A DNA stretch of 64,000 nt from Bdellovibrio sp. ZAP7 (GTDB taxonomy: Bacteria > Bdellovibrionota > Bdellovibrionia > Bdellovibrionales > Bdellovibrionaceae). The stretch lies in the NCBI RefSeq assembly GCF_006874645.1, contig NZ_CP030082.1, positions 2,232,001-2,296,000 on the forward strand, in the 5' to 3' direction. A program made the position numbers and the translations under genes. How positions within the stretch are numbered: position 1 is the first letter of the stretch; each line of letters starts with the position of its first letter. Shown piece after piece: positions 57,679-58,687 of the stretch. The notes under the pieces were generated by a model, which ran no database searches, was not told where the DNA came from, and saw only the letters and a program-made list of their open reading frames with translations.

Positions 57679-58152
57679 ATGAAAACAATGATCCTCTCAC
57701 TAGCATTGCTTATTTCAACAAACGCGTTCGCCGCTGCAGACTTTTCAAAAAAGTTAGAACTATGCGCCCTACAAACTTCTGACGACCCAGAGGCTTATGA
57801 AAAAGCCTTCTCTGAAACTTTCATCTACGTAAACAAAGCCACAAGCCTGACAGATGAACAAGTAAGAATGATCAACGCCCACCTGATTCAAGTTGAATAC
57901 ACAACAGAACCATTAACATTCGCCGAAATTAAGGCCCTGTTCACAACCGGCGAACAACAATACAACGACCTTTATTTCGTAACAATGAAATCAAAAACCA
58001 CTGGCGCCATCTTCTTCGAAGCCAAATCCTACCCAGGTGACAACCCCTACGGCGTAGTATTCACAGCAACCGGCGACCTAGCAGCCTACAACCAAGACGA
58101 CAACATCACATTGGTAGAAGGCCAAGCAACATACGCCTGCCCTTGGAAATAA
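57679..58152 (+). CDS. Small exported protein of unknown function
   Basis: AAGGA is six bases before the ATG at 57679. The 157-residue protein has a signal peptide (MILSLALLISTNAFA-AA) and two Cys (LELCALQ, TYACPWK) likely joined in a disulphide. The middle (FFEAKSYPGDNPYGVVFTATGD) is beta-like. Codon use in this gene is noticeably less varied, with many -c/-a third bases. No family is recognised. A strong terminator follows. Confidence 0.82.
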   Translation: MKTMILSLALLISTNAFAAADFSKKLELCALQTSDDPEAYEKAFSETFIYVNKATSLTDEQVRMINAHLIQVEYTTEPLTFAEIKALFTTGEQQYNDLYFVTMKSKTTGAIFFEAKSYPGDNPYGVVFTATGDLAAYNQDDNITLVEGQATYACPWK

Positions 58153-58214
58153 ACAAAAAAGAAAATCAAAAAAAGGGGATCACAACCCCCACTTCTAAAA
58201 AAACCAAATCAAAT

Positions 58215-58242
58215 AAAAAGCCCCGGCACCCCGGGGCTTTTT
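58215..58242 (+). terminator. Intrinsic terminator after the 57679 gene
   Basis: AAAAAGCCCCGG, loop CACC, CCGGGGCTTTTT: a strong 12-bp stem with T-run; symmetrical, so it may work both ways. Confidence 0.95.
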
Positions 58243-58365
58243 ATTTTTGATCTCCACCACCCCATCAACTCCAATTAAAAAACTAACTTCCGCACAAACA
58301 ATACCCGACACCAGAAATAATCCACGAGGAATAGGATCCAACATTGCCCCATCGATCGAAGAAGA

Positions 58366-58549
58366 TTTGAACCCGCCACCCGCAGCTGACCTGGGCACAG
58401 CGGGCCGTGCCTGCCACGAAGCGACCTCCGTGGGCGCCACGATGGCGCGCACCCGCCAAAGGCGGGCCACGGCCGAGCCCGGATGGCGTGTCGCGAAGAG
58501 GCAGGCACGGAACGATGGGACCAGGGCAGATGCGGGTGGCGGGTTCAAA
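58366..58549. repeat. 184-base G+C-rich long palindrome
   Basis: The ends are perfect 19-bp inverted repeats (TTTGAACCCGCCACCCGCA at 58366-58384 and its complement at 58531-58549). Inside, CTGACCTGG/CCAGGGCAG, CCGTGCCTGCC/GGCAGGCACGG and finally CCCGCC-AAA-GGCGGG continue the pairing to the centre. It is far richer in G+C than its surroundings. Open frames across it on both strands are a by-product of its composition. The flanks (58243-58365, 58550-58687) hold no gene. Confidence 0.93.
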
Positions 58550-58687
58550 CCCTCTTAGCATTCCGAACTAGAGCCAAAAAGGAAGCAATTCCCCGGCACG
58601 ATTATTGGATTACCCCAGAACGGAAATACTATTTCTTGGGATAACGGTGTCTTTATGGCACTTGAACGTTTGTTGGGAGAATTGAAG

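What the first reader, a model, noticed from the sequence alone, without database searches (positions are those of the whole stretch)
58366..58549. 184-base G+C-rich palindrome with perfect 19-bp ends
The whole element pairs with itself to a three-base loop, with strong stems at the ends, middle and centre, and its G+C differs sharply from the host. This looks like a non-autonomous mobile element or a very stable structured RNA. No target duplication is visible.
Basis: seen in the sequence. Interest (0 to 1): 0.65.

Follow-up and report, generated by a model that had tools for sequence, protein, structure and literature searches.

The report
Shape-conserved hairpin repeat in Bdellovibrio
The palindrome is one of about 30 scattered copies of an undescribed DNA element in the predatory bacterium Bdellovibrio; each copy keeps the same folded tip but has its own stem sequence, the two sides of the stem change together so that the fold is kept, and only one of the two DNA strands shows the signs of being the one that folds.

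Summary
The palindrome is real: 184 bp, 71% G+C against 49% locally, perfect 19-bp ends, fold z-score -7.6. It belongs to an undescribed dispersed family: 32 copies in this Bdellovibrio genome, present in 22 of 24 genomes of the genus, nearly absent elsewhere. Rfam, phage and plasmid collections gave no match.

Anatomy: a conserved ~75-nt cap (three short hairpins), then two arms of ~26-45 nt whose sequence differs from copy to copy yet pairs within each copy. Some lineages also have a conserved base (GCAAAATTT...AAATCCCCGC). About 183 bp recurs at unrelated sites, so it has moved as a unit. 26 of 32 copies sit at the same loci in a sister species; there, 71 of 123 changed arm pairs changed on both sides and stayed paired.

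Arm mismatches are strand-asymmetric: G.A 39 against C.T 0 and G.U 23 against A.C 7 in independent arms. One specific strand folds; a symmetric cruciform is excluded.

Best reading: a non-autonomous hairpin element once mobilised as folded single-stranded DNA, working like REP or IS200/IS605 ends. Membership fails: no GTAG tag, far longer, no link to Y1 transposases. The main rival is a structured RNA with GGA loops (CsrA-like). Why inherited copies keep pairing is unexplained.

The parts
58366..58420 (+). 5' arm of the hairpin (copy-specific sequence; includes the perfect 19-bp end 58366-58384)
   Evidence: pairs with 58495-58549; orthologous copy in G022 (L147) keeps it
58421..58494 (+). conserved cap (core) shared by all copies: helix P1 58421-58425/58490-58494 closing a branched structure
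   Evidence: covariance model hit 58416-58499, 87.9 bits; alignment A2
58428..58472 (+). P2 helix (CCGTGG 58428-58433 / CCACGG 58467-58472), G-C to C-G swaps between copies, enclosing P3 and P4
58434..58448 (+). P3 hairpin GCGCC-ACGAT-GGCGC (loop with CGA in this copy, GGA in others)
58452..58466 (+). P4 hairpin CCCGCC-AAA-GGCGGG (tri-loop AAA/GAA/GCA in most copies)
58477..58487 (+). P5 hairpin GCC-CGGAT-GGC (GGA loop)
58495..58549 (+). 3' arm (copy-specific; includes the perfect 19-bp end 58531-58549)
58359..58556 (+). likely full extent including weaker base pairing AAGA(AGA)/(CCC)TCTT
   Evidence: arm extension (L043: 57 + 57 nt)
58211..58246 (.). separate intrinsic-terminator hairpin beside the upstream gene, not part of the element
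   Evidence: similar hairpin in G022 and G021

Best explanation
It is one copy of a genus-wide family of non-autonomous hairpin elements. Shown: one strand (the window + strand here) folds into a long stem with a conserved three-hairpin cap; the arms are free to change sequence but not to stop pairing; a unit of about 183 bp has been copied to many intergenic sites, mostly near gene 3' ends, and is then inherited at those sites. Inferred: the folded single-stranded DNA form is what a hairpin-recognising (HUH/Y1-type or similar) transposase or nuclease reads, by its cap and base, as with REP sequences and IS200/IS605 ends; the arms only have to hold cap and base together. Also inferred: most copies are now old, and the fold is kept by continuing selection on the folded strand.
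For: Dispersal: 32 copies in the genome, 22 of 24 genus genomes. Discrete unit: 183-bp match, arms included, between G023 copies at 2.76 and 2.31 Mb with unrelated flanks. Gain or loss: G021 lacks the element at the window locus. Conserved base, TCnAGCAAAATTT...AAATCCCCGCTnGAA, seen in roughly 15-20 copies, mostly in other species. Arms: 84% Watson-Crick within a copy against 27% when swapped between copies. Compensation in own-G022 orthologs: of 656 WC arm pairs, 533 unchanged, 71 changed on both sides and still WC, 44 changed on one side (11 of them to G.U). Cap: 8 of 24 pairs with double changes, 34 such cells against 9.7 in shuffles. One strand: in 33 copies with independent arms G.A 39 v C.T 0, G.U 23 v A.C 7, A.A 7 v T.T 1, G.G 4 v C.C 0. 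DNA-like details: G.A mismatches outnumber G.U; P4 tri-loops C-AAA-G, C-GAA-G, C-GCA-G; 128 of 142 caps fold into three hairpins with DNA parameters, 107 with RNA parameters. Orientation to genes is indifferent, (+,+) 40 v (-,-) 36, as expected if read-through transcription is not what matters.
Against: No transposase is linked: Y1 genes lie more than 10 kb from elements except one case in G005 with unrelated genes between, and G012 has 15 copies with no Y1 gene. No target duplication or perfectly clean empty site was found; three 'cap-less' alleles look like deletions of the hairpin tip. Selection for transposition cannot act on a fixed old copy, so locus-by-locus compensation is not explained by mobility alone. 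The DNA-like details are suggestive only; tri-loops and G.A pairs also occur in RNA. Orientation to replication showed no clear bias (positions).
Confidence: 0.45

Rival explanations
1. A multicopy structured RNA: the element strand is transcribed, and the cap presents GGA hairpin loops to an RNA-binding protein such as CsrA, in the manner of CsrB/RsmZ sponges or of a 3'-UTR element; the arms are a spacer helix whose sequence is free.
For: Strand-asymmetric mismatches with G.U above A.C. At least one of the two cap loops P3/P5 is GGA in 139 of 142 copies; both CGA in only 2. Best sub-threshold Rfam resemblance of the element is PrrB_RsmZ, 21.7 bits against a cut-off of 44. A csrA gene is present. 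Orthologous copies keep the fold at their loci.
Against: No Rfam match at gathering score in five loci. Elements face genes in either direction equally; no promoter-like site near the window copy. About 65 of 142 copies have CGA instead of GGA in P3. G.A exceeds G.U in the arms, unlike ordinary RNA helices (general knowledge). In HD100 only one of eight attack-phase sRNAs (APsRNA6, PMC3627812) overlaps an element, in antisense.
Confidence: 0.27
2. Self-templated mutation: the hairpin forms during replication and one arm is used as template to correct the other, so the arms stay complementary without any function.
For: Double changes exceed single ones in arms that diverge at least as fast as flanks: arms 0.83, flanks 0.88, cap 0.94 identity. 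Cap-less alleles fit slippage at short direct repeats.
Against: G.A mismatches are kept (57 unchanged, 13 turned to WC, 15 new) and are tied to the element's own strand whatever its orientation in the chromosome, which a replication process would not give. Double changes cluster only weakly (15 adjacent against 10.0 expected). Cap and base are conserved in sequence.
Confidence: 0.15
3. A bidirectional transcription terminator or mRNA 3'-end stabiliser kept for its hairpin.
For: Enriched between convergent genes (52 of 139) and rare between divergent ones (11); right ends often abut a stop codon.
Against: No T-tract follows the hairpin in the window and a separate terminator lies upstream; a plain terminator does not need a conserved branched cap; the strand asymmetry is independent of gene direction.
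Confidence: 0.08
4. An ordinary REP/BIME family with a cognate RAYT.
For: Intergenic, palindromic, inverted pairs occur; Y1_Tnp genes in 21 of 24 genus genomes.
Against: No GTAG/CGTC tag, about 183 bp instead of 20-50, no linkage, no correlation of copy number with Y1 genes.
Confidence: 0.05

Closest known systems
REP / REPIN / BIME repeats with TnpA-REP (RAYT) (PMC8266576, PMC3733652, PMC3116915)
   Same: Dispersed intergenic palindromes, inverted pairs, strand-specific ssDNA hairpin recognition with conserved mismatches, preference for gene 3' ends.
   Different: REPs are 20-50 nt with a GTAG tag and conserved stem; here about 183 nt, branched cap, sequence-free arms, no tag, no linked transposase.
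IS200/IS605-type subterminal hairpins and their derivatives
   Same: Strand-specific imperfect hairpin; no target duplication seen.
   Different: A single long hairpin is the whole element; no left/right end pair with guide sequences identified; no autonomous partner found.
Integron attC sites
   Same: Single-strand folded, one strand used, sequence-variable stem between conserved parts (from general knowledge of attC).
   Different: Conserved part is at the tip as well as the base; dispersed, not in cassette arrays; no R-box core noticed.
CsrB/RsmZ (PrrB) sponge RNAs
   Same: GGA in hairpin loops.
   Different: Not a match at Rfam threshold; multicopy, dispersed, GGA replaced by CGA in many loops.
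ERIC/RU and other bacterial MITEs (PMC2759123)
   Same: 100-200 bp imperfect palindromes in intergenic regions.
   Different: Those keep their stem sequence between copies; here the arms do not.

Membership tests
REP/RAYT (REPtron) | GTAG or CGTC tetranucleotide beside the palindrome | tested here: not met
   Ends are TCnAGCAAAATTT / AAATCCCCGC or copy-specific
REP/RAYT (REPtron) | 20-50 nt palindrome | tested here: not met
   About 183 nt
REP/RAYT (REPtron) | Cognate Y1 (RAYT) gene flanked by the repeat | tested here: not met
   No cap within the fetched surroundings of the Y1 genes examined; one G005 case about 1.6 kb away with unrelated genes between
REP/RAYT (REPtron) | Strand-specific cleavage of the ssDNA hairpin | not testable with these tools
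   Biochemistry needed; the mismatch asymmetry is compatible
MITE (non-autonomous transposon) | Discrete unit at many unrelated sites | tested here: met
   183-bp unit with unrelated flanks; 32 copies
MITE (non-autonomous transposon) | Terminal inverted repeats matching an autonomous element | tested here: inconclusive
   Inverted ends present, but no autonomous element found among Y1 candidates; other transposase families not searched
MITE (non-autonomous transposon) | Target-site duplication | tested here: inconclusive
   No clean empty site
CsrB/RsmZ sponge RNA | Rfam match at gathering score | tested here: not met
   21.7 bits v 44; none at gathering in five loci
CsrB/RsmZ sponge RNA | GGA in hairpin loops | tested here: met
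   At least one GGA loop in 139 of 142 caps
CsrB/RsmZ sponge RNA | Expressed RNA that binds CsrA | not testable with these tools
   Only APsRNA6 overlaps an element, in antisense
IS200/IS605-derived element | Y1 transposase partner flanked by the hairpin ends | tested here: not met
   No linkage

The most novel reading that the evidence does not exclude
A genus-wide class of genetic element whose identity lies in a folded single strand rather than in sequence: conserved cap and base joined by arms that evolve freely by paired changes and are maintained copy by copy, read by an unknown Bdellovibrio protein as single-stranded DNA (or RNA).
Probability: 0.3. Interest if true: 0.85.

Novelty: new variant of a known kind. 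Interest (0 to 1): 0.62.

Why it matters
Bacterial palindromic repeats are normally recognised by a conserved stem. Here the stem sequence is free and only its pairing is kept, with an asymmetry that names the strand that folds. The copies spread over 22 genomes, including (judged by its length) the model strain HD100, allow a direct test of whether a folded single strand is kept for mobility, for a host function, or by templated mutation. None of the papers found in the searches describes it.

Tried and rejected
Symmetric cruciform: rejected by the G.A v C.T and G.U v A.C asymmetry. Known RNA: no Rfam family at threshold for the element; the rimP hit at 58168-58273 lies on the neighbouring terminator. 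Phage or plasmid origin: no match; the one viral-contig pattern hit (L287) does not score with the cap model. RAYT partner: not linked and not correlated. The first ortholog search, in Bdellovibrio sp. BIN15 (L094), failed because synteny ends upstream of the element. Orientation against replication, assuming the origin at position 1: own genome 12 with and 20 against the fork, G022 11 and 19, G021 9 and 8; not convincing, counted by hand. Clean empty sites: the candidates were tip deletions or rearranged regions. Literature: five searches gave no description of such a family; only open-access papers were searchable.

Full report
Observation. It lies between two genes on the same strand: an unnamed protein ending at 58152 (no Pfam match) followed by a terminator hairpin at 58211-58246, and an S8 subtilase starting near 58655.

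A family. A nucleotide search of the window's own genome gave 28 matches, most of them confined to the central ~80 bases. Read out in full, each copy has the same central cap but mostly its own outer sequence, and in each the two sides pair. A covariance model of the cap (21 copies) finds 32 copies in the genome, copies in 22 of 24 genomes of the genus (2 to 31 or so each), and only weak or few matches in other genera of the class. The genus is Bdellovibrio: the nearest named record to a window protein is Bdellovibrio sp. BIN15. Genome G006 has 3,782,950 bases, which to my knowledge is the length of B. bacteriovorus HD100; it has ten or eleven copies.

Anatomy. Cap: P1 GCGAC/GTCGC, P2 CCGTSG/CSACGG enclosing P3 and P4, then P5. 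Eight of 24 cap pairs show changes on both sides with pairing kept; 34 double-change cells against 9.7 in shuffles, and slid versions give 0 to 2. Next to the cap is an internal loop of G.A type (GCA/GGA). Arms: about 26-45 nt, with sequence unrelated between most copies. In 33 copies chosen so that no two left arms share a 7-mer, arms are 84% Watson-Crick with their own partner and 27% with another copy's partner. Base: in other Bdellovibrio species and a few copies here, TCnAGC-AAA(A)-ATTT on the left faces AAAT-CCCC-GCTnGA on the right. In G002, G006 and G023, copies at unrelated loci match over the whole 183 bp, arms included, at about 85%. The arms therefore travel with the unit and diverge later.

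How the arms change. 26 of the 32 copies sit at orthologous places in G022, whose flanks are about 88-90% identical. There the arms are 83% identical, the cap 94% and the flanks 88%. Of 656 arm pairs that are Watson-Crick here, 533 are unchanged, 71 changed on both sides to another Watson-Crick pair, 11 became G.U, 12 G.A and 21 another mismatch by a change on one side, and 8 changed on both sides to a non-WC combination. Double changes are only weakly clustered. The cap subtype (GTGG/CCAC or GTCG/CGAC) differs between several orthologs, which looks like exchange between copies (inference). In three cases one species keeps the foot of the hairpin but lacks the tip, consistent with deletion between short repeats. 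In G021 the window locus has no element.

One strand folds. Mismatches in the arms, counted on the cap-sense strand, are G.A or A.G 270 against C.T or T.C 10, G.U 104 against A.C 27, A.A 25 against T.T 6 and G.G 16 against C.C 2 over 142 copies. Related copies are counted more than once there; in the 33 independent-arm copies the figures are 39/0, 23/7, 7/1 and 4/0. A cruciform or any strand-symmetric process would give equal numbers. So one defined strand is the functional or selected form, as RNA or as single-stranded DNA. Leaning to DNA: G.A exceeds G.U; P4 loops are C-AAA-G, C-GAA-G or C-GCA-G in most copies; and more caps fold into three hairpins with DNA than with RNA parameters. None of these is decisive. 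Leaning to RNA: at least one of the two other cap loops carries GGA in 139 of 142 copies, as in CsrA-binding RNAs, and csrA is present.

Setting. Relative to the element strand, flanking genes are convergent 52, same-sense tandem 40, opposite-sense tandem 36, divergent 11 (simple ORF calling, orthologs counted separately). Promoter regions are avoided, gene 3' ends preferred, and direction is indifferent to the genes. Sense read-through from an upstream gene is thus not available to about a third of the copies. In HD100, one of eight attack-phase sRNAs, APsRNA6 at 1,338,787-1,339,441 + (PMC3627812), runs through a copy at 1,339,154-1,339,241 in antisense and ends in a partial second copy. This match of coordinates assumes that G006 is that reference sequence.

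Mobility partner. The genome has ten Y1_Tnp genes and the genus many more, but no cap lies by the ones examined except one in G005 with unrelated genes between. G012 and G016 carry copies without any detected Y1 gene, and copy number does not follow Y1 number. The element may be an old resident whose driver is lost, or the driver is of another family.

Mechanism. Most likely, with about 45% confidence: a non-autonomous hairpin element that was mobilised as a folded single strand by a hairpin-reading enzyme, the cap and base being the recognition parts and the arms a sequence-free spacer helix. Dispersal as a unit, strand-specific fold and pairing constraint are shown; the enzyme, the ssDNA nature and the reason for continued constraint on old copies are inferred. 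The weakest point is the last: selection for transposition does not act on fixed copies, so either each copy has a host function, or exchange between copies is continuous, or RNA function is the answer.

Novelty. It works like REP or IS200/IS605 hairpins; it is not a member of either by tag, size and linkage. No description was found in five literature searches of open-access papers or in Rfam 15. I rate it a new variant of a known kind (structured palindromic repeat), with a real chance that it is a kind of its own.

Noticed in passing
L055/L024, L057/L022, L027 (G000 1637077, 2392108, 3624204): A 64-66 bp two-hairpin module (CAAAAATAGCAGGATGCTATTTTTG...AGGGCAGGAGCCCT, GGA loops) sits inside a P3 or P5 loop of the element. 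All three full copies in the genome are in such loops, and the orthologs in G022 lack it.
   Followed up: partly
L285 about 1300-1760 (G000 3122252): An intergenic locus rich in GGA-loop hairpins, with a diverged copy of the same module but no cap; could be a CsrB/RsmZ-like sRNA of Bdellovibrio.
   Followed up: no
L164 7049-7451, L149 6757-7287, L079 15-308, L061 1224-1582, L227 1094-1471: Elements often occur as inverted pairs about 150-400 bp apart with different arms, BIME-like.
   Followed up: partly
G006 1338787-1339473 (L274, L280): Attack-phase sRNA APsRNA6 of HD100 (PMC3627812) spans an antisense copy and ends at a second one.
   Followed up: partly
The window's genome and G022 carry 10 and 12 divergent Y1_Tnp (RAYT-like) genes, most genus members 0-6; hardly any simple inverted repeats flank the ones checked.
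   Followed up: partly
window 58168-58273: The terminator region on the reverse strand crosses the Rfam rimP leader cut-off by 0.9 bit, most likely a false positive from a strong terminator hairpin.
   Followed up: no
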